Below, one piece after another: positions 4,279 to 24,324 of a stretch of DNA of 24,563 nt. The stretch's first letter is position 1; the number at the start of each line of letters is the position of its first letter. The stretch spans positions 1 to 24,563 of IMG/VR virus record IMGVR_UViG_3300023257_000558; one strand, 5' to 3'. Source of the stretch: a virus. Below the pieces are notes generated by a model. The model had not been told where the DNA came from. It made no database searches and saw only the letters and a list, made by a program, of their open reading frames with translations. Position numbers and translations under genes: made by a program.

Positions 4279-4794
4279 ATGAAAGACACAAACGAAAATT
4301 CAGAAAATTTAAAAGATTGCAATTCCTGCTATTCCTGCAATTACTGCAATTACTGCTATTACTGCAATTACTGCGATTCCTGCTATTCCTGCGATTCCTG
4401 CTATTACTGCTATTACTCTAAAGGATTAAGAATGTCAGAAAAAATGATATTTTGTCTTGGAGAAGGAAGACATAAAAGTAAAGGAATTGGTTATCAGAAA
4501 AACCATATGGCTTTTAATAAAAAAGTTTCAGAAGAAAGATATGATGAAATTTTAGGTGAATTAAGAAAAATATTAGAAGATTTAAAATTAGAACTAAACG
4601 AAGAATCTTGGTCAGATGAATGGAAAAAAGTAACCAGAAAACAATGGATTGAAATATCTAAAATACCTGAATTTGATAAAGGAGTTGTTGAAGGAATAAC
4701 TGGCATTGAATTAGATTTAGATAAGACAGAATTATATTCAAAGGAAACTATTGAAAATGCTAAAAGAATATTGAAAGATGTTGGGGAGTTATAA
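4279..4794 (+). CDS. Cysteine-triplet-repeat protein, unknown function
   Basis: A 171-residue protein in two parts. Residues ~14-46 are eleven tandem three-residue units of the form C-[N/Y/D]-[S/Y], so cysteine falls at every third position. The remaining ~120 residues form an ordinary-looking mixed, charged domain beginning 'MSEKMIFCLGEGRHKSKGIGYQ' (split here as two short motifs: 'MSEKMIFCLGEG' and 'RHKSKGIGYQ') with long helices after residue ~85 ('RYDEILGELRKILEDLKLEL'). A three-residue cysteine period could bind metal or Fe-S, stack as a helix, or form a disulfide ladder; I cannot choose. The A-rich upstream has no SD. Uniform codon use in the second part shows this is a true gene. Confidence 0.75.
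   Translation: MKDTNENSENLKDCNSCYSCNYCNYCYYCNYCDSCYSCDSCYYCYYSKGLRMSEKMIFCLGEGRHKSKGIGYQKNHMAFNKKVSEERYDEILGELRKILEDLKLELNEESWSDEWKKVTRKQWIEISKIPEFDKGVVEGITGIELDLDKTELYSKETIENAKRILKDVGEL
4318..4416 (+). repeat. In-frame 9-bp tandem repeat (11 units, DATTMCTGC)
   Basis: Eleven consecutive 9-base units encode the cysteine triplets. Written from the x codon, each unit is [A/T/G]AT T[C/A]C TGC. Only two of nine bases vary and both changes alter the amino acid; no synonymous change is seen. Confidence 0.9.
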
Positions 4795-11830: not shown

Positions 11831-12130
11831 ATGTTAGATAAAGGATTTAAGAAAGCAATTAAAGATTCATTAATGGGAGCAAGAAAATCTTGTGTAGCAC
11901 ATAGAGTTAATGAGTTATTATTTGAGAACAAATTAAAAGATTTAGGTAAGGTTAAAAAGCCAAAGTGTTATGGCAACGATAAGTTAACTGATGACCAAAA
12001 GAAGGCTACTGATATTTATGATAGATATGTAAATAAATCACTTGATTTGAATACAAAGTATTTACAGTCAAGAGAAGATAGAGAGAATATGCAAGAGGTT
12101 GTAAAAATTATTGAAAACAATGATCTATAA
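11831..12130 (+). CDS. Small helical protein, unknown function
   Basis: A 99-residue basic helical protein starting immediately after the previous stop. 'KDSLMGARKSCVAHRVNEL' and 'KKPKCYGNDKLTDDQKKATDIYDRY' (motif 'LTDDQKKATDIYDRYVN') are its most distinctive parts; the two cysteines are far apart. Its last 11 bases overlap the deacetylase gene. No recognised domain. Confidence 0.6.
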   Translation: MLDKGFKKAIKDSLMGARKSCVAHRVNELLFENKLKDLGKVKKPKCYGNDKLTDDQKKATDIYDRYVNKSLDLNTKYLQSREDRENMQEVVKIIENNDL

Positions 12131-12755
12131 AAAGATAGGGAATATTTATTTTACTACCAGTTGGGATGATGGACACCCACTAGATTTAAGAATAGCTGAA
12201 TTATTAAAAAAATATACTTTTACTGGAACATTCTTTATTGCTCCAAATAATCCAGAAAGAGAAGTAATGAAACCAACTGTAATATCAAAGCTATCCTATG
12301 ATAGATTATTTGAGATAGGTGGTCATACAAATACACATGTAGAATTATCTAAAGTATCACCAGAAGTTGCTATTGCTGAAATCAGAGAAGGTAAAAGAGT
12401 TTTAAGGAGAGGTCTTTATAGACAAACACTAGATTCATTTTGCTATCCTAAAGGAAGATATAATGAGGATGTAAAAGCAATGGTAAAGAAATGTAAGTTT
12501 AGGGAAGCAAGAACAGTTGATGTTTTAAATAATAAACTACCAAAAGATAATTATGCTATCAAGCCAACAATACATGTTCATCCTAGTAGGAAAGAATACA
12601 ATGGAAAGAATTGGTTGGAAGTAGCTAAAGAAGTTTGGAAAGATCCAGAAACAGAATATTTCCATTTATGGGGACATAGTTGGGAAATAGAAAAGTATGG
12701 TTTGTGGGATGAGTTAGAAGAATTATTTAAATTTATTAAGAGTTATGAAGATTAA
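12120..12755 (+). CDS. Polysaccharide deacetylase (NodB/CE4 family)
   Basis: A 211-residue metal-dependent deacetylase. All main NodB motifs are seen: 'TTSWDDGHPLD' with D16-D17, 'GGHTNTHVEL' with metal ligands H69 and H73, 'FCYPKGRYN' (a variant of R/Y-x-P-x-G-x-Y/F), and 'HLWGHSWE' with H186. It would remove acetyl groups from a sugar, either on the cell surface or on a phage-linked glycan. There is no signal peptide, so it acts in the cytoplasm, perhaps on sugar intermediates. I used ATG 12120 rather than TTG 12111. It opens the sugar-gene series and overlaps the next gene by 11 bases. Confidence 0.85.
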   Translation: MIYKKIGNIYFTTSWDDGHPLDLRIAELLKKYTFTGTFFIAPNNPEREVMKPTVISKLSYDRLFEIGGHTNTHVELSKVSPEVAIAEIREGKRVLRRGLYRQTLDSFCYPKGRYNEDVKAMVKKCKFREARTVDVLNNKLPKDNYAIKPTIHVHPSRKEYNGKNWLEVAKEVWKDPETEYFHLWGHSWEIEKYGLWDELEELFKFIKSYED

Positions 12756-13605
12756 ATTATATATATCAAACTTTAGCAACACAAGCATTGGTGGAGGTTG
12801 GACTTTTCTTCGTAATTTATTAAAAGGATTAGAAGGGAAAGTAGAGATAGTTGATAATTGGAAAGAATGTGATATATATTTTGTATTCGGTATAACCACA
12901 ATAGACAAAGGAGAGATTTATAATGCTCTTTCATCTGGTAAGAAGCTTGTTTTAAGGGTTGATAATATACCTAGAAAATCAAGGAATAAAAGACAGTCTC
13001 CTGTTGCTAGATTAAAAGAGTTTGGTAACCTAGCTGACGCTGTTATATATCAAGGAGAATGGTGTAAGTATTATGCTGGTTATTTTATAGACAATAAGAA
13101 AGAATATATTATTAACAATGGCGTAGATACATCTATATTCAATGAAAAAGGTAGAGAAACAGGCGAAAAGACCTATTTATACATCAATTATAACGATAAT
13201 CCTAACAAGCGATTTGATGAAGCATTGTATAGATTTGACATGGAATGGCGTAAAAACAATGGAATTAAGCTTATAATTGCTGGTGATGCGCCTAGAATCT
13301 ACAAAGAACACCCAGAATATGACTGGGATTTACCTATTCCTGCTGATATTGAATATGTTGGTATAAAGAATGAGCCAAAAGAAGTGGCTGAATTAATGAG
13401 AAAGTGCGATTATTTATTGTATCCTTCATTCTGTGAGGCATACCCTAACACTTTGTTAGAGGCTATGGCTTGTGGAATGAAACCTCTATATCTTAACTCC
13501 GAAGGTGGCAGTCTTGAACTGTACAAAAAGAATCTGAATGGAGTTAAGACCATCCAAGTGATGGCAGACGAGTATATGGAGGTATTCAAAAAATTAGTTC
13601 TTTAG
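12745..13605 (+). CDS. Glycosyltransferase, GT-B fold, family 4-like
   Basis: A 286-residue enzyme. The N-terminal half begins 'SNTSIGGGWTFLRNLLKGL', with the glycine-rich acceptor loop; the C-terminal half carries 'NNGVDTSIFN', 'LIIAGDAP', and the nucleotide-sugar motif 'SFCEAYPNTLLEAMACG' with the E-x7-E pattern of GT4 enzymes. It is shorter than usual (~350), mostly in the first domain. It likely transfers a sugar from an NDP-sugar. The gene ends 70 bases before the next large gene, with a small structured element in the gap. Confidence 0.85.
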   Translation: MKIKLYISNFSNTSIGGGWTFLRNLLKGLEGKVEIVDNWKECDIYFVFGITTIDKGEIYNALSSGKKLVLRVDNIPRKSRNKRQSPVARLKEFGNLADAVIYQGEWCKYYAGYFIDNKKEYIINNGVDTSIFNEKGRETGEKTYLYINYNDNPNKRFDEALYRFDMEWRKNNGIKLIIAGDAPRIYKEHPEYDWDLPIPADIEYVGIKNEPKEVAELMRKCDYLLYPSFCEAYPNTLLEAMACGMKPLYLNSEGGSLELYKKNLNGVKTIQVMADEYMEVFKKLVL

Positions 13606-13669
13606 GGGGAATCACATGAAATGGGAGTTACCTGACCCCAGCTGTATTGCAAATCCCCCGCAATTTTAA
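13605..13669 (+). other. Stem-loop with SD and possible 17-codon gene
   Basis: GGGGGA (13605-13610) pairs with TCCCCC (13654-13659); the inner TGGG can pair with CCCA at 13637-13640. The same GGGGG is an SD 7 bases before ATG 13616, which opens MKWELPDPSCIANPPQF (13616-13669). Translation of this frame would need the stem to open. Either a regulatory hairpin, a true micro-gene or a remnant. Confidence 0.4.
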
Positions 13670-13674
13670 AAATT

Positions 13675-14241
13675 ATGAGTTATTATAGTGAACAATTAAC
13701 AGACTTTATTGCTAGGCTTGAAATTAAAGCAGATAGTGTTCTTGATATTGGTTCTAGTCAAAAAAAAGTATTTGATAGAACAAAAGGTTGGGATGTAAAA
13801 GAATATATAACATTAGATTTAGAAGTTCCTCATGAGGGAGAAAAATCAGATATAGTGTGGGATATAAATGAGAAGAGTGGCATTAGAAAAGATTTATATG
13901 AGACTTTTGACATAGCATTCTGCCTAGAAGTAATGGAATATATATACGATCCTGTTAATGCTTTAAGTATTGTATGTGGGTTTTTAAGGAAAGGTGGAGA
14001 ACTATACATATCTTTCCCTTTTGTTTATTGTATCCATAAGCCTGTTAAGAATGATTATCTACGATATACAAGGATGGGAGCTATTAAATTACTAGAAAAT
14101 GCTGGATTTGAGATAGAAATGATTATGGATAGAGTAGCAAAAGACCCTGAAAAGTTAAGAGATTTCTATAAGTCAGATGGAATGCACGTTGGAGGAGATT
14201 CAAATGTAACAGGATTTATAATTAAAGCTATAAAAAGATGA
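13675..14241 (+). CDS. SAM-dependent methyltransferase (class I)
   Basis: A 188-residue enzyme of the methyltransferase-11/23 type. 'SVLDIGSSQKKVFD' is motif I (SAM loop), 'YITLDLEV' the acidic strand-2 end, 'FDIAFCLEVMEYIYDP' motif IV, and 'GGELYISFPF' strand 5. The target is probably a sugar or lipid intermediate, since it lies between two glycosyltransferase genes and overlaps the second one (ATGA). Substrate is not readable from sequence. No SD. Confidence 0.8.
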   Translation: MSYYSEQLTDFIARLEIKADSVLDIGSSQKKVFDRTKGWDVKEYITLDLEVPHEGEKSDIVWDINEKSGIRKDLYETFDIAFCLEVMEYIYDPVNALSIVCGFLRKGGELYISFPFVYCIHKPVKNDYLRYTRMGAIKLLENAGFEIEMIMDRVAKDPEKLRDFYKSDGMHVGGDSNVTGFIIKAIKR

Positions 14242-15119
14242 AATTAAGCATACACACAACAATAACTAATCCAGACTACTGGCAATACGCATGGAAAGAA
14301 TCTATTGAATCATTCTTGGCATTGGCTGATGAAGTAATAGTCATTTATGGTTCTGAAACAGACTTGAGGTTATTACAGAACATAGATGTACCACATGGAA
14401 AGGAATTAAAATGGGCTTATCTTGAATGGCCTTATAATTTTAGTTGGGATGAGATAAGTAGGCACAATAATCTAGGCTATTCACTATGTACTGGTGATTG
14501 GGTAATGAAGACTGATTGTGATTATGTATTCCATGAGAACGATATTAAGAATATGAGAACACAGCTCGAGAAGTATTTAGAAGAGGGTTGGTTAGCATGT
14601 TCTTTTATGAAATATACAATAATGAATAAAGATAGAGCTTATCAGAAGGTTCATCTACCATTCATTTTGAATAAGAAGATGTTAGGAGATACAGTAGGCT
14701 ATGGCCCATCAACAACAGAGAATACAGCTTGGGGATACCCTATTCATAGAGACGAGTTTGATGATGAGTTAGGATTACCTAAAGGAAGGTCAATAGATCC
14801 TAGTGTAGTTAGATCAACTGGTGTAGATTGCTGGAATTATGATAACTTCTTCAAGGATAAGAAGATAACAGGTGAACAGTTCTTGAGATTCAGTCATTCT
14901 AGAGATAAAGCAGGGTTTGGTGCAACTTGGGGTAAGACTAAAGAAGAAGCTTTAAAGAAGTTTTGTGAGATGTCTGCTAGTAGATTAAAGAAGACTGGAG
15001 CTACTTATAAGCCTTTATCATTAGACGATCATCCTAAATTTGTAAGAGATAAGGTAAAGAATATGACAGAAGATCAGATGGGGTATAACAACTGGAATAA
15101 TTTTGAAGGAATACTATGA
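14238..15119 (+). CDS. Glycosyltransferase, GT-A fold, family 2-like
   Basis: A 293-residue protein. It starts 'MKLSIHTTITNPDYWQ', lacking the typical IIPT loop but keeping the strand order; 'ALADEVIVIYGSETD' and 'CTGDWVMKTDCDYVF' follow, the latter with a D-x-D metal motif at the expected position. 'SRHNNLGYSLCTGDW' resembles the 'ARN-x-G' segment of GT2 enzymes. The C-terminal third ('TGVDCWNYDNFF', 'FLRFSHSRDKAG') probably holds the acceptor site. Start and stop both overlap neighbours by 4 bases. Confidence 0.7.
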   Translation: MKLSIHTTITNPDYWQYAWKESIESFLALADEVIVIYGSETDLRLLQNIDVPHGKELKWAYLEWPYNFSWDEISRHNNLGYSLCTGDWVMKTDCDYVFHENDIKNMRTQLEKYLEEGWLACSFMKYTIMNKDRAYQKVHLPFILNKKMLGDTVGYGPSTTENTAWGYPIHRDEFDDELGLPKGRSIDPSVVRSTGVDCWNYDNFFKDKKITGEQFLRFSHSRDKAGFGATWGKTKEEALKKFCEMSASRLKKTGATYKPLSLDDHPKFVRDKVKNMTEDQMGYNNWNNFEGIL

Positions 15120-15400
15120 AGATTTTTAATAGTTATTTTATTTATACTCTAAAAAGATACTTGTTTGGTGGCTTCATGGATTTATTCTGTATTCTTAAAA
15201 TGACTGGTTATGGTAATAAGAAAGATACTATAAGTATGATGTTTGCTGAAATTGGAATTAGTACATTGGAAAAGATTATAAAACAAGCTAAAGATGTTAA
15301 TAATGGAGAAACTGTATATTCAAACCTTACACGGATTTATTTAAATACTATATCAAAAAGATGTAGGAAAATTTATAAACCTTTTAATTTAGATGATTAA
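15116..15400 (+). CDS. Hypothetical protein
   Basis: A 94-residue protein with a partly hydrophobic N-terminal third ('YFIYTLKRYLFGGFMDLFCILK'; motif 'YLFGGFMDLFCILK') and a polar helical rest ('AEIGISTLEKIIKQAKDV'). It is start-coupled to the preceding gene by ATGA. I do not recognise it; a membrane-associated role is possible because of the N-terminal aromatic cluster. Confidence 0.55.
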   Translation: MKIFNSYFIYTLKRYLFGGFMDLFCILKMTGYGNKKDTISMMFAEIGISTLEKIIKQAKDVNNGETVYSNLTRIYLNTISKRCRKIYKPFNLDD

Positions 15401-15683
15401 TAAAAAAAAGATGACAAATAACATAAGCAAAATACTTGAGGAGTTTGATAAGCTAATAGCTGATATTGGTTATAGAGCTTTGCATGGTAAAAAATACGAT
15501 TCAGAGAAGGAAACTAAAGACTTCATAAAACAATCAATAGAGAAATGCCTTGATGAGATGTTATATAAGTTGGATAAATTTGAAGAGGAGACAAACAATA
15601 ACTGTCAAAGAATAAATATAAACCCATCTTTTGATGAGACAAAAGAATTTCTTGAAGAAAAAATCAATAAGATAAAAGAATAA
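15393..15683 (+). CDS. Hypothetical helical protein
   Basis: A 96-residue protein, charged and helical throughout, with 'SKILEEFDKLIADIGYRALHG' at the front (motif 'DKLIADIGYRALHG') and 'TKEFLEEKINKIKE' at the end. The alternative start at 15411 avoids the 8-base overlap with the previous gene. No known domain is visible. Confidence 0.55.
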   Translation: MINKKKMTNNISKILEEFDKLIADIGYRALHGKKYDSEKETKDFIKQSIEKCLDEMLYKLDKFEEETNNNCQRININPSFDETKEFLEEKINKIKE

Positions 15684-15684
15684 T

Positions 15685-15744
15685 ATGGGAGAAATAACAA
15701 ATACAGCAACATGGGAGAAAACAGGTGGCGAATATGCTATTGAT
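15685..15744 (+). repeat. Duplicated gene start, copy 1 (partner 16350-16409)
   Basis: The first 60 bases of the two adjacent methyltransferase genes differ at only about 3-4 positions; similarity stops sharply after the codons for 'GGEYAID'. Third bases are also conserved, so this is a recent duplication or conversion. Confidence 0.85.
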
Positions 15745-16350
15745 TATATGAAAAGATATAATTTAGTTTCGTACGACGAATATATAGAATCACAACTTGC
15801 TAGAGTTAAATCAAAGCAAGGTACTTTTTTAGAACAACCAGATAGATTAGAAATGTTTAAGAAAATAGCAAACACAGCAGGAGAAAAATTACCAAAACTA
15901 AAAAGGATAGTTTGTATGGGAGTAAAAAATGGTGCTGAATGTTTTGAATTTAAAAAGAATAGATTTTATTGCGAAGCAGAAATACATGGAGTTGAATTAA
16001 GCGAATTAGTTAAGACTGCTAAAGGAGATGATGGTTTAAAGTTTCATCAATTAGACTTTAATGAATTACCTGATGAGTGGGAGGATAAGTTTGACTTTCT
16101 TTATAGCAATAGTTTAGATCATGCTTACTTGTTAAAAGATACACTAGACGAATGGTATAGAATAATGCACTCAAGGGGATATATGCTTCTAACCTTAAGT
16201 AAAGGATTGATTACAGAATGTGATATATACTCTTTTGATGAGAAAGACATTGATAAGTCATTAGATAAAGATAAGTTTGATTTAGTTAAGCTATGGAAAG
16301 AGAAGAATCAAGAAAACAGCTTTAATATATTATTAAAAATAAAAAAGTAA
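15685..16350 (+). CDS. Methyltransferase-like protein A
   Basis: A 221-residue protein of the class I SAM methyltransferase type. 'IVCMGVKNGAECFEF' takes the place of motif I, 'AEIHGVELSE' of strand 2 and 'FDFLYSNSLDHAYLLKD' of motif IV, with 'GYMLLTLSKG' as strand 5. Motif I is unusual (G-V-K-N-G-A). The first 20 residues, starting MGEITNTATWEKTGG, are nearly identical to the start of the next gene in protein and in DNA, while the rest differs. It ends at the next start codon (TAATG). Confidence 0.7.
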   Translation: MGEITNTATWEKTGGEYAIDYMKRYNLVSYDEYIESQLARVKSKQGTFLEQPDRLEMFKKIANTAGEKLPKLKRIVCMGVKNGAECFEFKKNRFYCEAEIHGVELSELVKTAKGDDGLKFHQLDFNELPDEWEDKFDFLYSNSLDHAYLLKDTLDEWYRIMHSRGYMLLTLSKGLITECDIYSFDEKDIDKSLDKDKFDLVKLWKEKNQENSFNILLKIKK

Positions 16351-16949
16351 TGGGAAAAATAACAAACACAGAAACATGGGAGAAAACAGGTGGCGAATAT
16401 GCTATTGATCTTGATAGAAGATTGAAACAATCTGGCAAAAATCCTTATGTTATACAAAGAAAGTTCGCATTAGACGCATTAAAGAAGATTAATTTTAAGA
16501 CAGCACTTGAAGTTGGTTGTAATAATGGCAGGATATTAGAGCCTTTATTCAAGCATTTTCCTAAAAGACACATAGAAGGATGTGATATAAGCCGAGAAGC
16601 TTTGGATATTTTGCAAGAAAGATGCCCTAAAGCAGAGTTAAGAAAGGTAAATATAGTAGAAGGATTACCATATAAGGACAATGAGTTCGATTTAGTATAT
16701 ACAAGTGAGTGTTTATGCCATATTGCTTACTATGATATTGATAAAGTAAGAGATGAACTAAAGAGGGTAGCTAAAAAGGTTATTTTCTTGAGTGAACCAT
16801 TTAGACCAATCTATCCAGATAAGCATACAGTAAATGTAGGTAGTGATAGTCATGGTGGAACTTTTTGTCATCATCACGAGAAATACTTTGATAATTGTGA
16901 GACAGATTTTATGGAAAGAATAGCTAAAAATTATTTAATAACATTATGA
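16350..16949 (+). CDS. SAM-dependent methyltransferase B (class I)
   Basis: A 199-residue enzyme with a clear class I core: 'ALEVGCNNGRILEPL' (motif I), 'EGCDISREALDIL' (strand 2), 'NEFDLVYTSECLCHI' (motif IV) and 'AKKVIFLSEPF' (strand 5). 'SHGGTFCHHHEKYFD' near the C-terminus has several histidines that may bind metal or substrate. Its first 20 residues copy those of the preceding gene. The likely substrate is a sugar or sugar-lipid in the same pathway. Its stop overlaps the fragment at 16946. Confidence 0.82.
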   Translation: MGKITNTETWEKTGGEYAIDLDRRLKQSGKNPYVIQRKFALDALKKINFKTALEVGCNNGRILEPLFKHFPKRHIEGCDISREALDILQERCPKAELRKVNIVEGLPYKDNEFDLVYTSECLCHIAYYDIDKVRDELKRVAKKVIFLSEPFRPIYPDKHTVNVGSDSHGGTFCHHHEKYFDNCETDFMERIAKNYLITL

Positions 16950-17002
16950 GAGTATTAATAACACCAGTGAAACATGAGTATTTAATAAATAATTTAAAAT
17001 AA
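16946..17002 (+). pseudogene. Orphan 5' end of a glycosyltransferase-like gene
   Basis: An 18-codon frame, MRVLITPVKHEYLINNLK, with an ATGA overlap to the preceding stop. The first six residues match those of the next gene (MRILIT). It looks like the start of another GT-B gene cut off after its first strand and helix. Confidence 0.5.
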
Positions 17003-17003
17003 T

Positions 17004-18593
17004 ATGCGTATTCTAATAACAAATGACGTGGAAGGTTGGGCTATTGGAAACCTAACTGATGCCATTATCAAGCACAACAAGAATAGGTTTAATTTTATTA
17101 AAGTTCCAGTACATCCTAGGGGAGTTGGAGAATCATTAATTCCTTTAAAAGATGCGATAGATGTTAAAGGAGTTGATCTTTGGCATGGACAATATTGGAA
17201 CAGTTCGCTAAAGATGTTTGATTACTTCCCTCATTTAAGAAAGCAGACAAGCCTATTAACTCATCACAACCATCATTGTTTAAACAAGGACACTTGGGAA
17301 GACTTTAACTCTTTGAATGAAATGACACAATGGGGAGTAGATAAGTTAAGTAAGATACACGAAAATGTGTTTAAAATACCTCATGGAATTGATTTAGATA
17401 GGTTTGCTTACATTGATGAGCTAACAGAAAACAAGAATATAGGGTATATCGGTAGAGTAGTACCTTGGAAATGCCTAAAAGAGATATGTGAAGCAGCTAA
17501 TAAGTTCGAATATAATGTAGTTGGATCAGGATATATTGATGATGTTAAGTATTGGGAAGAGATACCAAGGGATAGATTAGAGTTTAATGGTGGTACTTGC
17601 AGGGCTGAAATGGCTTCAGCATCGTTTAAAGACGACTTATATGAAGATATGATGTGTTTTGTCATGTATTCTACTGGTGAAAAAGAATCAGGAACATTAC
17701 CTTTACTAGAAGCAATGGCGAGTGGAGTTCCTATTTTAGCTACAGAACAGGGTATGGCTAGAGATTTGATTAAAGATGGAGTGAATGGAGTATTCTTTAA
17801 TGAAGAAAACTTTGAAGAGAAGCTTCAACTTGTCATGGAAGATAAGAAGTTAAGAGAAAAGATTAGAAAGAATGCTTGGGAGACTATAAAGAACTATAGT
17901 GAATCAAAGATGGCTAGAGATTATGCAAAGGTTTATTACAAGACTGTATTCAAAGATAATCCTGTTATCTCTGTTATTATCCCAACATTTGATAGAGCAG
18001 AAAAGCTATATGACATAATTGAATCTATTGATAGTCAAACTTATCCTGCTAAAGAGATTATTATAGTTGAAGATGGTGATGATGGAGGTAAGACAAAGAA
18101 AGTATGTGAAGAGATAAAGAAACACCTTAAGACACCAGTTATTTATATGAATACTGGCAATGCTAATGACTACTATGGATTGGCTCAAGCTAGGAACATG
18201 GGAGCATGTGAAGCACTAGGTGAGGTACTTCTATTTTTAGATGATAGATATGCACTTGAACCTGATGCACTAGAACATATATCTAAATGTAAGAATAACC
18301 ACTTTGACTTTGGTGTAAAGGTTATTAAGGGTAAAGAATCTACAAAGAAAGCATTTATTGAGAACTTTGCATGGATAAGAAAGAAAGACTTCTTCAAAGC
18401 TGGAATGTTTAATGAAAGACTTAATATGTATGGTGGTTTAAGCCAAGAAACTAGAACTAGATTTAATGCTCAAGGATTCAAAATGAACCAAGATAAGAGT
18501 GTAAAATGTAAAGAGATATTAAGTTCAAGAAAAAATAAGAATAAGAGTGAGATATGGAAAGCTAAATTTTTATTAAGCAAAATATATGAATAG
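17004..18593 (+). CDS. Bifunctional glycosyltransferase: GT4-like domain fused to GT2-like domain
   Basis: A 529-residue two-domain enzyme. Residues ~1-315 form a GT-B domain: 'PHGIDLDRF', 'IGYIGRVVPWKCLKE' and 'STGEKESGTLPLLEAMASG' with an E-x7-E nucleotide-sugar motif. Residues ~318-529 form a GT-A domain: 'PVISVIIPTFDRAEKLYD', 'EIIIVEDGDDGG', 'AQARNMGACEALGEVLLFLDD' ending in the metal-binding acidic pair. Each active site appears complete, so two successive sugars may be added by one chain. The gene starts 1 base after the orphan fragment and its stop overlaps the severed start of the next glycosyltransferase. Confidence 0.88.
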   Translation: MRILITNDVEGWAIGNLTDAIIKHNKNRFNFIKVPVHPRGVGESLIPLKDAIDVKGVDLWHGQYWNSSLKMFDYFPHLRKQTSLLTHHNHHCLNKDTWEDFNSLNEMTQWGVDKLSKIHENVFKIPHGIDLDRFAYIDELTENKNIGYIGRVVPWKCLKEICEAANKFEYNVVGSGYIDDVKYWEEIPRDRLEFNGGTCRAEMASASFKDDLYEDMMCFVMYSTGEKESGTLPLLEAMASGVPILATEQGMARDLIKDGVNGVFFNEENFEEKLQLVMEDKKLREKIRKNAWETIKNYSESKMARDYAKVYYKTVFKDNPVISVIIPTFDRAEKLYDIIESIDSQTYPAKEIIIVEDGDDGGKTKKVCEEIKKHLKTPVIYMNTGNANDYYGLAQARNMGACEALGEVLLFLDDRYALEPDALEHISKCKNNHFDFGVKVIKGKESTKKAFIENFAWIRKKDFFKAGMFNERLNMYGGLSQETRTRFNAQGFKMNQDKSVKCKEILSSRKNKNKSEIWKAKFLLSKIYE

Positions 18594-18618
18594 AAAACTA
18601 AAAGTATATGTTGACTAG
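18586..18618 (+). pseudogene. Severed 5' end of the downstream glycosyltransferase gene
   Basis: ATG 18586 overlaps the preceding stop by 8 bases, as genuine operon genes here do, and reads MNRKLKVYVD then TAG. This is a typical first beta strand of a GT-B enzyme. The gene at 19203 lacks such a strand and is in an open frame upstream only to 19182 (TDHV before its ATG). Confidence 0.6.
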
Positions 18619-18639
18619 TAAAGAATATTAGTATAATAT
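18611..18639 (+). promoter_or_regulatory. Promoter of the HNH gene at 18667
   Basis: TTGACT (18611-18616), 17 bp, TAATAT (18634-18639), the same hexamers and spacing as at 7442-7470. An overlapping TATAAT (18632-18637) gives a 15-bp spacer. The -35 coincides with the broken glycosyltransferase codons. Confidence 0.6.
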
Positions 18640-18666
18640 TTAGGTATAACTATTAATAATAAAATT

Positions 18667-19143
18667 ATGCCTAAAACAATTTATAGAGTTCCAATAGGAA
18701 CAAAAATTACAGAGAAAGAAACTGGTTATATAAGAATTAAAATAAAACCTGGATTATGGAGAAGAGAACATTGTATAATAATGGAAAAAAAGATCGGAAG
18801 AAAGTTAATGAAAGGAGAACAAGTACACCACATTAACAGAGTAAAAGATGATAATAGACTTGTTAATCTATCGCTATGTACAAATTCCAGTCATCATAAA
18901 TTAGAGTATAGTGGTTCAGGTTTAGAGAAATACAATAAAGAAAAACATGTCAAAAACAAAAAACAATTTAAGGTTTGTAAGTGTTGTAAAAAACAATTCT
19001 CTAAATTTGACAAGGAGTATAAATCAAGCGATAAAATATGGGAAAAAACAAAGTATTGTAGCATTAAGTGTAGAAACCTTGATAGTAAAAATTGGAATCA
19101 TTTATCAATAAAATTTAATAATTATGAAAAAAAGAAAGGATAG
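18667..19143 (+). CDS. HNH homing endonuclease with C-terminal zinc finger
   Basis: A 158-residue nuclease. The front has beta-strand segments ('GYIRIKIKPGLWRREHCI'), then the core 'GEQVHHINRVKDDNRLVNLSL' (H54, H55, N67; motif 'VHHINRVKDDNRLVNL') and 'SSHHKLE' (H76, H77). A zinc finger follows with 'CKCCKKQF' (C104, C107) and 'CSIKC' (C131, C135). The layout equals that of the HNH gene at 7477, though identity is low. It carries its own promoter, lies between the severed start and the body of a glycosyltransferase gene, and is followed at once by a long hairpin. Confidence 0.82.
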   Translation: MPKTIYRVPIGTKITEKETGYIRIKIKPGLWRREHCIIMEKKIGRKLMKGEQVHHINRVKDDNRLVNLSLCTNSSHHKLEYSGSGLEKYNKEKHVKNKKQFKVCKCCKKQFSKFDKEYKSSDKIWEKTKYCSIKCRNLDSKNWNHLSIKFNNYEKKKG

Positions 19144-19190
19144 CCATGTGGGAGCAAAGCGCAAACTTCGCGTTTTTGTAACCACATGGC
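19143..19190 (+). other. Long hairpin at the right end of the HNH insertion
   Basis: Perfect 9-bp stem GCCATGTGG/CCACATGGC (19143-19151 with 19182-19190). An inner bulged stem pairs CAAAGCG with CGC and TTTG. The stem starts on the last base of the HNH stop codon and ends 12 bases before ATG 19203. No T-run follows, so it is not a standard terminator. Confidence 0.65.
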
Positions 19191-19202
19191 ACTGATCACG
19201 TT

Positions 19203-20192
19203 ATGCACTACTACGATTTGTTTAATGCCTTAAAGGAATATGCAGACTTCTATGTTTGTTATAACCACGCTAGAGAATGGAAAAGCAATAACTTCTTATC
19301 AGCTAGACCTATACCAGAAAATGCTACATTTGTTTGTGGCTATGAGCCTGGGATTTATGATTTTGCTATTCTTAATGTAGATCAACAAATAACAAATCCA
19401 TTATTAGGTAAGACACATGTTTTTAAGGAATTGTTTGATACAGTACAAGATATTCCAAAGGTAGTTATTAATCATGCTACACCTGTATATCCAGAACATC
19501 TGAAAGCACATGGTATGAATTTTAATGATGCAGAAAATGAATGTAAAAGAATAATTAAAGAATTATTAGGAGATACGCCAATGATTACTAATAGTCATAC
19601 TGCATCATCTGAAAGTGAATGGGGATGGGGTTATCCTATTATCCACGGAATGAATAAAGAAGAATATTTTGATTTACCAAAAGAACCTCGTGCTTTTACA
19701 GCTTTAAGTCCAGCAGGTTGTGATAAATATTATAATAGAGATGTAATGGATAGAGTTATTTCAATAATGAGAGATGAACATGGCAGAACTGTATTATGGG
19801 CTAAAAAGAATGTTCAGACAGATAAATCTTTTGAATGTTATCGTGATTATTTAGGAAGGTCTTTAATCTATCTTGATACTTCAATTAGGACACCAATGAA
19901 TAGAGCCAGAACAGAAGCAATGTTATCTGGATGTTGTGTTGTTCAAGTTAATGGTTGCCACGATCAAGATAAGTTTTTTAAAGATAGAGAGAATTGTATA
20001 ATTGTTCCTAATAATCCTTTTGAAATTGCTGAAATACTAGAAGATTTATTAGAGAATAAATATAAAGAGTGTTTAGCTATCGGACAAGCAGGAAAGAAAA
20101 TGGCCCAAGAAACATTTACTAGAGAAAGGTTTGCACAAGATTGGCTTAAATTTATTAAAGAAGTATTAAAAATAGATTATGAAAAGATTTAA
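19203..20192 (+). CDS. Glycosyltransferase, GT-B fold (N-terminus severed)
   Basis: A 329-residue protein. Recognisable parts: 'VVINHATPVYPEHLK', 'PMITNSHTASSESEWGWGYPIIHGMN', 'FTALSPAGCDKYYN', and the donor-site region 'TPMNRARTEAMLSGCCVVQVNG' (motif 'NRARTEAMLSGCCVV'), followed by 'FEIAEILEDLLENK' and 'FTRERFAQDWLKF', the usual GT-B closing helices. The ATG is internal: the first strand of the fold is missing and is found at 18586 beyond the HNH insertion. The protein may still fold, or be inactive. The stop overlaps the next small gene by 14 bases. Confidence 0.72.
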   Translation: MHYYDLFNALKEYADFYVCYNHAREWKSNNFLSARPIPENATFVCGYEPGIYDFAILNVDQQITNPLLGKTHVFKELFDTVQDIPKVVINHATPVYPEHLKAHGMNFNDAENECKRIIKELLGDTPMITNSHTASSESEWGWGYPIIHGMNKEEYFDLPKEPRAFTALSPAGCDKYYNRDVMDRVISIMRDEHGRTVLWAKKNVQTDKSFECYRDYLGRSLIYLDTSIRTPMNRARTEAMLSGCCVVQVNGCHDQDKFFKDRENCIIVPNNPFEIAEILEDLLENKYKECLAIGQAGKKMAQETFTRERFAQDWLKFIKEVLKIDYEKI

Positions 20193-20286
20193 AGGAAGTC
20201 CAGCATATCTAATATTTTGGGTATTAGTATTTTTCCCATTTGCAGTTGTATATTGGGCTGCTAAACAAGAAGTAATAAAAGAATAA
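20179..20286 (+). CDS. Very small membrane protein
   Basis: A 35-residue frame with a basic start ('MKRFKGSPAY'), one hydrophobic span ('LIFWVLVFFPFAVVYWAA') and a charged end. It overlaps the glycosyltransferase stop by 14 bases and ends two bases before the dehydrogenase gene, so it fits operon spacing. It may be a membrane anchor for the sugar enzymes; unproven. Confidence 0.5.
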   Translation: MKRFKGSPAYLIFWVLVFFPFAVVYWAAKQEVIKE

Positions 20287-20288
20287 TT

Positions 20289-21065
20289 ATGGAAGTTGCA
20301 ATAATTGGTTATGGTGTAGTAGGTATGGCTTATAATAAGATATTTGATAATGCTTATATTTATGACAAGGTAGGTTTTAGTGATAATAAAGAAGATATTA
20401 ATAAATGTGATTTAGGTATTATTTGTGTTCCAACACCAGAAGGAAAAAATGGTAAGACAGATCTATCAGCCATAGAAGATGTGCTTAAATGGTTAGAAAC
20501 ACCCCTTATTCTGATTAAAAGTGCTGTTCCACCTAGTACCACCACCTATCTAAAAAAGAAGTATAAGAAGCGTATTTGTGTATCTCCTGAATATGTTGGA
20601 GAAAGTAAGTATTATATACCAGATAAATATTTAGATCCAACAGACCCCAGAAAACATCCATTTCAAATATTTGGAGGAGACAAAGAAGATACTAAAGAGA
20701 TAGTAGATATATTCCAAGAGCAGTTAGGACCAACAGTAAGATATATTCAAGTTAGTAGTGAAACAGCAGAGCTTACTAAATATATGGAAAACTGTTTTTT
20801 TGCCACAAAGGTTACATTCTGTAATGAGTTTTATGAGATAGCAAAAGGATTTGATGTTGACTATAACGAATTGAGAGAATGCTTTATAGAAGACCCAAGG
20901 GTTTGTAATATGCACACATCAGTTTTTAAAGAGAATAGAGGGTTTGGTGGTAAATGCTATCCTAAAGATTTAGCAAGTATTATATCTTCTAGTGAAAAGA
21001 AAGGATATAAACCAATGTTATTAAGACAAGTAAGAACATCTAATAATAAATTTAAAAAACTATGA
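20289..21065 (+). CDS. Short UDP-glucose/GDP-mannose dehydrogenase-like protein
   Basis: A 258-residue NAD-dependent dehydrogenase that would oxidise an NDP-sugar to its uronic acid. Visible: Rossmann 'AIIGYGVVG' (4-12), 'GIICVPTPEG', K174 in 'ENCFFATKVTFCNEF', and catalytic C223 in 'GFGGKCYPKD'. The family usually runs ~430 residues with a C-terminal UDP-binding domain; here the protein stops about 30 residues after the catalytic cysteine. The NAD-binding and central domains are intact. It may have a different substrate, or use another protein for nucleotide binding. It overlaps the next gene by 4 bases. Confidence 0.8.
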   Translation: MEVAIIGYGVVGMAYNKIFDNAYIYDKVGFSDNKEDINKCDLGIICVPTPEGKNGKTDLSAIEDVLKWLETPLILIKSAVPPSTTTYLKKKYKKRICVSPEYVGESKYYIPDKYLDPTDPRKHPFQIFGGDKEDTKEIVDIFQEQLGPTVRYIQVSSETAELTKYMENCFFATKVTFCNEFYEIAKGFDVDYNELRECFIEDPRVCNMHTSVFKENRGFGGKCYPKDLASIISSSEKKGYKPMLLRQVRTSNNKFKKL

Positions 21066-22107: not shown

Positions 22108-22135
22108 ATGAGGAATTACATAATTAACTCCTCAT
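22108..22135 (+). promoter_or_regulatory. Leader hairpin before the portal start
   Basis: ATGAGGA (22108-22114) pairs perfectly with TCCTCAT (22129-22135), with an inner AATT/AATT. It ends 5 bases before ATG 22141. No T-run, so it may affect message stability or translation rather than termination. Confidence 0.55.
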
Positions 22136-22140
22136 TAAAT

Positions 22141-24324
22141 ATGCCAAATAAATTTAGAGAATTTTTCAATCAGGTTTTTACAGATAAGAAACCTAGTAAT
22201 AATAGTGAGCCTAAAAAAGATTTAATACCTTTTTCAGCTAGTGCTACTTATAAGACACCCGTTCTAACATCCACAGCGTTGGATCTAATGGGATTATATC
22301 AGAAGAATGGTTGGGTTTATGCTTGTGTAAATAAGATAGCACAAGAAGCGGCGAGTATTGATATTAATTTATATAAAAAGAATAAGGATGGCGAAATCGA
22401 GAAAGTCGAAAACCATCCTGTTTTAGATTTGCTTGATAGAGTGAATCCATATATGACTTTTCATGCTTTAAAACAAACTACATTTTCATATCAGCAAATA
22501 ACTGGTTCAGCTTTTTGGTGGTTAGTAAAGAATGATTCAGGAAAAGAGATATTAGAAATATATCCTTGGTTGAATCCTGCTAACATGAAAGTATTACCAG
22601 ACCCAGAAAAGTTTATATCTGGTTATCAATACCAAATTCCTGGTGGAACATTTATTAAATTTGAGCCAGAAGATATAATCTATTTTAAAACATTTGATCC
22701 ATTAGATCCTTATGTTTCTACATCTCCACTTAAAGCTTCACAACTTGAAATATTAAATGATATTGAAGCAAAGGATTGGAACTATGCTTTTTTCAGAAAC
22801 TCTGCTAGACCAGATGGAGTATTAGAAATGGATGGAGCATTAACACCAGAACAAGGGGATAGAATAAAAGAAAATTGGTTAAAGAATCATGGCTCTGGAA
22901 ACCAAAAAGAACATTCGATAGCAATTATCGGTAAGGGTAAATATAAAGATATTGGATATTCACAAAAAGATATGGACTTCTCCTCATTGCTTAAATCATC
23001 AAGAGATCAGATACTTGCTTTTTATGGAGTACCGAAAACAGTATTAGGAATAACAGAGGATGTTAATTATGCTAATGCAGAGCAAACAAAGAAAGCATTT
23101 TTAGAATTTACTATTGTTCCAATAGTTATTAATTTTGTTGAAATGATGAATGAGTTTTTATTACCTCAATTCGACAATGCTGATGAATTATTTTTTGATT
23201 ATGAAAATCCTATAAATGAAGATGTTGAATTAGATTTAAAGAGATATGATAGTGGTATAAGAAATGGATGGTTAAGCCCTAATGAAGTTAGAGCAATGCA
23301 AGGATTAGAACCATTTGAAGGTGGAGATGAGATTGGTAGATCAACACAAGGAAATGATGGAGAAATATTTACTGAAAATGTTGGTAAGAGTAAAGTTGTT
23401 AAAAAGATAGTACCGAACATAAAACCTAAAAAGAAAAGTAGAAAACAGTTAGACATAGAAAGGCTGAAACAACTAGCAATGAAAGATAAAAATATTCTAG
23501 ATAAACTATCTAAAATATCAAAAAAAAAACAACTAAAACAAGTTAGTAAAGTATCTTTAGTTGAAAAAGATTTAGAAGCTAGATGGAGGTCAAAGATTGC
23601 TTTAACAAATAAACAAGAGATACCTTTTCAGAATCAAATTATAAGAGAATTTACTAGACAAGAAAAAACTGTTTTAGAATCATTAAGGAAGAAAAAGATA
23701 CAGACAGTAGAGGATGTTCAATTTGAATTTAATGTTGAAAAAGAAGTTAAGATTGTAAGTGAACATGTAGCACCAATGATGTTAGCTCTAGCTTTTTTCT
23801 GGGGTCAGAAAGGTAATGAAGAAATAAATTTACCTCTTGATGATTTCAGAGTAACGCCTTCTTTGATTAAATGGTCAAAAACATATTCTAAAAAGATGGC
23901 TACAAGTATGAATCAGACAACACTTGATAAACTTAAAAAACATATAGAAACTGGTTTGAATAAAGGAGAAGGATTGCCAAAGATTGAAAGTAGAATAAAA
24001 GGAATATTTGAAGAAGGAAGAAATGTAAGGTCTAAAGTAATGGCAAGGACAGAAGTATCAAGGTCAGTTAATGAAGGAAGGATAGAAGCTTGGGAACAAT
24101 CAGGAATAGTTGAAAAGAAAAGATGGGTTACAGCAGGAGATGAGAGAGTATGTGATTATTGTGGACCAATGGAAGGTAAAACAATTAGTTTAAGAAGTGA
24201 TTTTTTTAAAAAAGGAGATGAATTTTTAGGAAATTCAAAGACACCATTAAAATTAGATTATGATTCTGTTCCAGGGAATCCATTACATGCAAATTGTAGA
24301 TGTGATTTAGTACCAATACAATAA
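22141..24324 (+). CDS. Portal protein fused to MuF-like head morphogenesis domain
   Basis: A fused protein of 727 residues from ATG 22141; an in-frame ATG at 22108 adds 11 residues but sits in the leader hairpin. Residues ~1-400 are an HK97/SPP1-type portal ('VYACVNKIAQEAAS', 'SAFWWLVKNDSG', 'GVPKTVLGITEDVNYANAEQ' as key parts). About 400-480 is a lysine-rich linker. The rest is a MuF/SPP1 gp7-like minor head domain: 'MARTEVSRSVNEGRIEAW', 'DERVCDYCGPMEGKT' and 'HANCRCDLVP', with the paired cysteines that hold the fold. Such proteins form the DNA gate and carry a protein delivered with the DNA. Fusions of the two are known in some phages. Confidence 0.88.
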   Translation: MPNKFREFFNQVFTDKKPSNNSEPKKDLIPFSASATYKTPVLTSTALDLMGLYQKNGWVYACVNKIAQEAASIDINLYKKNKDGEIEKVENHPVLDLLDRVNPYMTFHALKQTTFSYQQITGSAFWWLVKNDSGKEILEIYPWLNPANMKVLPDPEKFISGYQYQIPGGTFIKFEPEDIIYFKTFDPLDPYVSTSPLKASQLEILNDIEAKDWNYAFFRNSARPDGVLEMDGALTPEQGDRIKENWLKNHGSGNQKEHSIAIIGKGKYKDIGYSQKDMDFSSLLKSSRDQILAFYGVPKTVLGITEDVNYANAEQTKKAFLEFTIVPIVINFVEMMNEFLLPQFDNADELFFDYENPINEDVELDLKRYDSGIRNGWLSPNEVRAMQGLEPFEGGDEIGRSTQGNDGEIFTENVGKSKVVKKIVPNIKPKKKSRKQLDIERLKQLAMKDKNILDKLSKISKKKQLKQVSKVSLVEKDLEARWRSKIALTNKQEIPFQNQIIREFTRQEKTVLESLRKKKIQTVEDVQFEFNVEKEVKIVSEHVAPMMLALAFFWGQKGNEEINLPLDDFRVTPSLIKWSKTYSKKMATSMNQTTLDKLKKHIETGLNKGEGLPKIESRIKGIFEEGRNVRSKVMARTEVSRSVNEGRIEAWEQSGIVEKKRWVTAGDERVCDYCGPMEGKTISLRSDFFKKGDEFLGNSKTPLKLDYDSVPGNPLHANCRCDLVPIQ

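What the first reader, a model, noticed from the sequence alone, without database searches (positions are those of the whole stretch)
4318..4416. 9-bp repeat with only amino-acid-changing variation (C-x-x triplets)
Eleven units of [A/T/G]AT T[C/A]C TGC. Seven of nine positions never change, including every third codon base; the two that change always change the residue (N/Y/D and S/Y). A young array would be identical and an old one would show silent changes. This pattern suggests selection for varied surfaces on a cysteine ladder, or a targeted mechanism. The N/Y/D changes at an A position recall A-directed mutagenesis of retroelements, but no reverse transcriptase is visible here.
Basis: seen in the sequence. 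Interest (0 to 1): 0.7.

Follow-up and report, generated by a model that had tools for sequence, protein, structure and literature searches.

The report
Self-homogenising cysteine-triplet array in phage proteins
A phage gene carries a run of Cys-x-x triplets whose DNA copies are kept identical at every silent base while the two non-cysteine residues differ from copy to copy; over fifty related phage genes repeat the pattern, which looks like fast repeat recombination plus very strong selection for a varied surface, as in the mammalian gene PRDM9.

Summary
Window 4318-4416 holds eleven 9-bp units TGC-[A/T/G]AT-T[C/A]C in a 171-aa ORF (4279-4794). I found 57 arrays of this kind (51 after removing near-duplicates, 862 units) in uncultured phages, joined to a conserved C-terminal domain. 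Within an array the third codon bases are almost fixed (28 of 2,580 deviate, 1.1%) while 42% of the x residues differ from the array's commonest one. Which third bases are fixed differs between arrays. Neutral repeat turnover gives a nonsilent:silent ratio of 0.6-1.6; observed 25. Tyr is spelled differently at the two x positions of the same array (193/195 codons follow the position), so codon bias is excluded. Lone silent deviants sit almost only in the last Cys codon, the signature of inter-unit recombination. The neighbouring domain evolves normally (median dN/dS 0.19). No reverse transcriptase was found in 30 phage records. The C-terminal domain is homologous to that of phage pentapeptide-repeat proteins, so the array probably replaces a pentapeptide solenoid. 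Best reading: a solenoid-like recognition or shielding array kept uniform by recombination and diversified by strong selection. Ligand and fold are not shown.

The parts
4279..4794 (+). ORF of 171 aa: leader, (C-x-x) array, conserved C-terminal (cap) domain
4279..4317 (+). 13-residue leader MKDTNENSENLKD, Asn-rich; similar MxDTN..N leaders in relatives
4318..4416 (+). Array of 11 units TGC-[A/T/G]AT-T[C/A]C (C-[N/Y/D]-[S/Y]); third bases fixed (template C,T,C)
4417..4791 (+). Cap domain (SKGLRMSEKMIFCLGEG...GYQKN..FNK...W...ITGIE), of the family that is homologous by profile to the C-terminus of phage Pentapeptide_2 proteins
4426..4455 (+). Most conserved cap motif, residues 50-59 (LRMSEKMIFC); used for array-blind DNA scans

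Best explanation
The feature is the array part of a phage accessory protein: an N-terminal (C-x1-x2)n array of 4 to 40 units followed by a conserved cap domain. Shown: silent sites are uniform within an array and differ between arrays, x1 is mostly N/D/Y/K, x2 is mostly S/Y/F, and unit order is scrambled even between close copies. Inferred: recombination between the 9-bp units (slippage, unequal exchange, exchange with paralogues or other phages) continually renews and shuffles the array and erases silent differences. Very strong diversifying selection on the two non-cysteine residues keeps restoring and maintaining differences there. Inferred with less certainty: the array folds as a short-strand solenoid with a Cys ladder inside, standing in for a pentapeptide-repeat solenoid, and the x1/x2 residues form a variable outward surface that binds or evades a fast-changing partner in the infected cell.
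For: 51 non-redundant arrays, 862 units: 28/2,580 third-base deviants against 720/1,724 minority x residues. Templates CCC, TCT, CTC, CCT, TCC, TTT and TTC all occur. Neutral turnover simulations give N:S 0.6-1.6 and at most 13% of arrays with N>0.5 and S<=0.02 per unit pair; observed 25.3 and 85%. Caps: median dN/dS 0.19, dS often saturated. Tyr codons follow position, not amino acid, in 193/195 cases. x1 third-base changes that alter the residue (to K, E or Q) occur in 15 arrays, silent ones in 3, although silent ones are transitions. In 5 of the 6 arrays whose silent deviants are confined to a single unit, that unit is the terminal one and includes the last Cys codon. Recombination is seen directly: L103's array is a fusion of two neighbouring copies in the near-identical phage L104. 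Order is no better than shuffled between adjacent paralogues with 97% identical caps and between window and L057. PRDM9 shows the same figures: 2 of 228 possible synonymous differences among human fingers (PMC2794550). Cap homology to Pentapeptide_2 proteins: hhalign 99.6%, E 5.5e-25.
Against: No binding partner, expression data or solved structure. AF2 gives pLDDT below 50 for most of the window's array, with bridge-like E--E--E only in the last units, and a second model of a long array was poor (pLDDT 55), so the solenoid is inference. Homogenising recombination alone would also erase x1/x2 differences, so the required selection is extreme. Ancient balanced alleles should carry linked silent differences and, except perhaps in L024, do not, so the nonsilent changes must recur quickly.
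Confidence: 0.62

Rival explanations
1. A dedicated, position-targeted mutagenesis system rewrites the x1 and x2 codons on a fixed unit template, like a diversity-generating retroelement but of another kind.
For: The signature (template fixed, chosen positions scrambled) is what such a system leaves; unit states show almost no autocorrelation along arrays; two near-identical phages differ by two array substitutions, both nonsilent, against five in about 7.6 kb elsewhere.
Against: No RT in 30 whole records up to 117 kb and no second template array seen. The altered base depends on the residue gained: A/G/T at x1 base 1, C/A/T at x2 base 2, third-base transversions for K, second-base changes for S/T/I/G. 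His and Cys outcomes are nearly absent, so selection filters residues in any case.
Confidence: 0.13
2. The same evolutionary process, but the varied residues are selected only to avoid monotony (solubility, anti-aggregation, array stability) on a metal-binding or disulfide Cys scaffold, with no specific partner.
For: Unit order looks random and is not conserved between relatives; Cys every third residue would suit metal binding; the x classes are polar or aromatic.
Against: If monotony of the DNA were the problem, silent changes would break it equally well and are not seen; selection for mere heterogeneity of residues should not keep changing them at this rate. Metal content cannot be tested here.
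Confidence: 0.18
3. Third bases are held fixed by a DNA, RNA or codon-usage constraint while the x residues drift neutrally.
For: Third bases hardly vary within an array.
Against: The fixed bases differ freely between arrays (seven templates); Tyr is TAT at one x position and TAC at the other in the same array; third bases do change when the residue changes (K).
Confidence: 0.04
4. Recent expansion of a few polymorphic founder units, with no selection.
For: A 27-bp higher period in the window; block repeats in a few arrays such as L022, L071 and L085.
Against: Neutral simulations fail; no general autocorrelation; the same contrast recurs in 51 arrays on seven different templates.
Confidence: 0.03

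Closest known systems
PRDM9 zinc-finger array (mammalian coding minisatellite)
   Same: Tandem coding units nearly free of silent differences within a gene (2 of 228 in human) but divergent between genes; strong positive selection on a few contact residues; silent exceptions in terminal units (PMC2794550)
   Different: 28-codon zinc-finger units that bind DNA, in animals; here 9-bp Cys triplets in phages, no known ligand, no sequence homology
Phage Pentapeptide_2 (PF01469) proteins with the same C-terminal domain: Roseobacter phage CRP-811 XYH46297.1, Clostridioides phage AR1086-1 WMU95219.1
   Same: Short-period repeat region followed by a homologous cap (hhalign 99.6%, E 5.5e-25)
   Different: Five-residue NTG-type repeat, not C-x-x; silent variation among units is ordinary, with several deviant third bases per array of 10-21 units
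PHROG families phrog_15341 and phrog_14105 (unknown function)
   Same: Match the array (15341, best E 9e-11) and array plus cap (14105, best E 4e-8) of several members
   Different: Undescribed families; the window protein itself matches only 15341 and weakly (E 0.0055)
Diversity-generating retroelements
   Same: Fixed backbone codons with variation confined to chosen codons
   Different: No RT, no template repeat seen, not adenine-specific
TAL effector repeats (recalled, not tested)
   Same: Near-identical units with two hypervariable residues per unit
   Different: 34-residue alpha-helical units of plant pathogens; no homology tested

Membership tests
Phage repeat-plus-cap proteins (cap shared with Pentapeptide_2 proteins) | Homologous C-terminal cap domain | tested here: met
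   tblastn E 8e-10 and 3e-6 with the flavour-1 cap; hhalign 99.6% E 5.5e-25
Pentapeptide repeat proteins | Five-residue repeat period matching a pentapeptide Pfam model | tested here: not met
   Period is 3 residues; no pentapeptide Pfam hit
Diversity-generating retroelement | Reverse transcriptase in the genome | tested here: not met
   PF00078 absent from 30 of 30 records; positive controls ring; records may be fragments
Diversity-generating retroelement | Template repeat copy of the variable region | tested here: not met
   The array pattern occurs in the window only at 4321-4410; no separate template array was seen among the matches listed for 30 records, though the list was cut
Diversity-generating retroelement | Variation confined to template adenines | tested here: not met
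   x2 varies at C/A/T base 2; x1 base 2 (A) rarely varies
PRDM9-like mode of evolution | Silent homogeneity within, divergence between arrays | tested here: met
   1.1% deviants within; seven templates between
PRDM9-like mode of evolution | Nonsilent excess confined to a few positions while the rest of the protein is conserved | tested here: met
   N:S 25 in arrays; cap median dN/dS 0.19
PRDM9-like mode of evolution | Silent deviants at terminal units | tested here: met
   Five of six arrays with silent deviants confined to one unit have them in the terminal unit, at the last Cys codon; small numbers
PRDM9-like mode of evolution | Variable residues contact a ligand | not testable with these tools
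   No ligand known
Metallothionein-like metal scaffold | Binds metal through Cys thiolates | not testable with these tools
   Needs expressed protein
Beta-solenoid | Coils of short strands with the Cys ladder inside | tested here: inconclusive
   E--E--E bridges near the cap at pLDDT about 75-84, rest of array below 50; second model poor; no PDB match

The most novel reading that the evidence does not exclude
Phages of uncultured bacteria carry a non-retroelement diversity-generating process: a 9-bp coding microsatellite that is continually re-founded from a uniform unit and re-diversified at two codons, giving each phage a different order of about nine unit types, which reads like a modular recognition code.
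Probability: 0.15. Interest if true: 0.9.

Novelty: new variant of a known kind. Interest (0 to 1): 0.66.

Why it matters
PRDM9-style evolution (recombination homogenises, selection diversifies contact residues) is best known from animal zinc fingers. Here it appears in phages in a unit of only three codons, in more than fifty arrays, with a normally evolving domain in the same protein as an internal control. If the x residues are a recognition surface, this is a fast counter-adaptation device of phages of uncultured bacteria, and its target would reveal an unknown arms race. The contrast is measurable from metagenome reads, so the selection-or-mutator question can be tested directly.

Tried and rejected
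Codon bias (Tyr spelled by position). Neutral turnover. DGR. Known domains: no Pfam, NCBIfam or PADLOC match above cut-off. PDB sequence and fold searches empty; BFVD only weak matches to viral proteins of unknown function. tblastn of array-containing queries in the phage collection found nothing, probably because low-complexity masking hides the array; a long cap query worked. Positional conservation of unit order: none beyond near-identical phages. Conserved neighbour: no gene is shared by all loci; six flavour-3 loci share an unnamed gene just upstream, without Pfam match. Host: one hit in a Saccharibacteria MAG contig, but in no other of 380 genomes of that phylum, so the host is open. Literature searches found no description of such arrays.

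Full report
What is there. Window 4318-4416 is 99 bp, eleven units TGC-[A/T/G]AT-T[C/A]C in frame inside ORF 4279-4794. The protein reads MKDTNENSENLKD, then C-[N/Y/D]-[S/Y] eleven times, then a cap domain. The window is a virus record with terminase and portal genes. An independent contig from IMG/VR carries the same array.

The family. A protein search, a degenerate array pattern and three cap-only DNA scans that ignore the array gave 57 arrays with a cap, 51 after removing near-duplicates. Nearly every locus from the cap-only scans had a cap-linked array, so cap and array belong together. Caps come in three flavours: KGLRMSE..FCLGEG..GYQKN..FN, KNLKMTEYN.FCYS..FQQKRYR.FN and KNLVNGFMCINLKF..KYWIFNKEV. 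Arrays run from 4 to 40 units. x1 is N 338, D 287, Y 164, K 31; x2 is S 524, Y 217, F 100. Some phages carry two copies (L032, L054, L104). Unrelated phages can share only the array gene (window and L057: 478 bp at 91%), so it seems to move as a single cassette.

The silent-site contrast. Within an array the third bases of Cys, x1 and x2 are nearly constant: 28 deviants among 2,580, against 720 minority residues among 1,724 x positions. Between arrays the constants differ (CCC 14, TCT 10, CTC 9, CCT 8, TCC 5, TTT 4, TTC 1). In 19 arrays with different constants at x1 and x2 and Tyr at both, 193 of 195 Tyr codons follow the position, which rules out codon preference. The caps of the same genes evolve normally: median dN/dS 0.19, dS often saturated. 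Phage pentapeptide arrays with a homologous cap show several silent deviants per array of 10 to 21 units, an in-family control.

Not neutral. Simulated arrays with mutation, block duplication and deletion, and full tolerance of N/D/Y/K and S/Y/F give nonsilent:silent ratios of 0.6-1.6 and at most 13% of arrays as skewed as the typical real one; real arrays give 25.3 and 85%. This control assumes the allowed residues are equally fit. The third base of x1 changes when that makes K, E or Q (35 units, 15 arrays, transversions) more often than silently (10 units, 3 arrays, transitions). Change therefore follows residue outcome, not the base.

How it probably works. Recombination between units is seen directly in L103/L104, where one array is a fusion of two neighbouring copies. 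In five of the six arrays whose silent deviants are confined to a single unit, that unit is the terminal one and includes the last Cys codon, as expected if end units escape exchange; PRDM9 shows the same (PMC2794550). Unit order is no better than shuffled between adjacent paralogues in L054 or between window and L057, while near-identical phages L032 and L046 differ by two array substitutions, both nonsilent, against five elsewhere in about 7.6 kb. Homogenisation would also erase x differences, so selection must keep restoring them. This step is inferred. A dedicated mutator is not excluded, but no RT was found in 30 records and no separate template array was seen.

What the protein is. The flavour-1 cap is homologous to the C-terminus of phage Pentapeptide_2 proteins, so the C-x-x array takes the place of a pentapeptide solenoid. 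AF2 supports triplet bridges only next to the cap and fails on a long array. Solenoid and surface roles are inference. No function is known; phrog_15341 and phrog_14105 are of unknown function.

Limits. Records are metagenomic fragments; host assignment rests on one MAG contig that may be a binning error. The list of pattern matches was cut. No reads were available, so rates within a population are not measured. The number of independent founding events is below 51 because arrays sharing a template may be related.

Noticed in passing
L032 3566-3700 (also L046, L068): A second tandem array, 12-bp units TTTACCACACG[C/A], differs in unit number between phages that are otherwise over 99% identical.
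   Followed up: partly
window 4420-4434: A cap Met (ATG at 4432) is preceded by AAAGGATTAAGA, a Shine-Dalgarno-like AGGA; a cap-only product from an internal start is possible.
   Followed up: no
window 12111-21065: Sugar-related genes in a phage: polysaccharide deacetylase, glycosyltransferase, a methyltransferase, UDP-glucose/GDP-mannose dehydrogenase.
   Followed up: no
window 22108-24324: One 738-aa ORF matches portal protein at its start and head morphogenesis (minor head) protein at its end, an apparent fusion.
   Followed up: no
L103 1463-1735, L104 3184-3456 and 3866-4039: A variant alphabet: x1 is mostly Ser (TCA), x2 is S/Y/D; two tandem genes in L104, one fused gene in L103.
   Followed up: yes
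L024 2851-2988 (minus strand): Exceptional array in which the Ser codon differs (TCC or TCT), apparently tracking the x1 residue; the only hint of linked silent differences.
   Followed up: no
L126 286-819: Erysipelotrichaceae MAG contig with an unrelated protein bearing CNSCNSC triplets at both ends.
   Followed up: no
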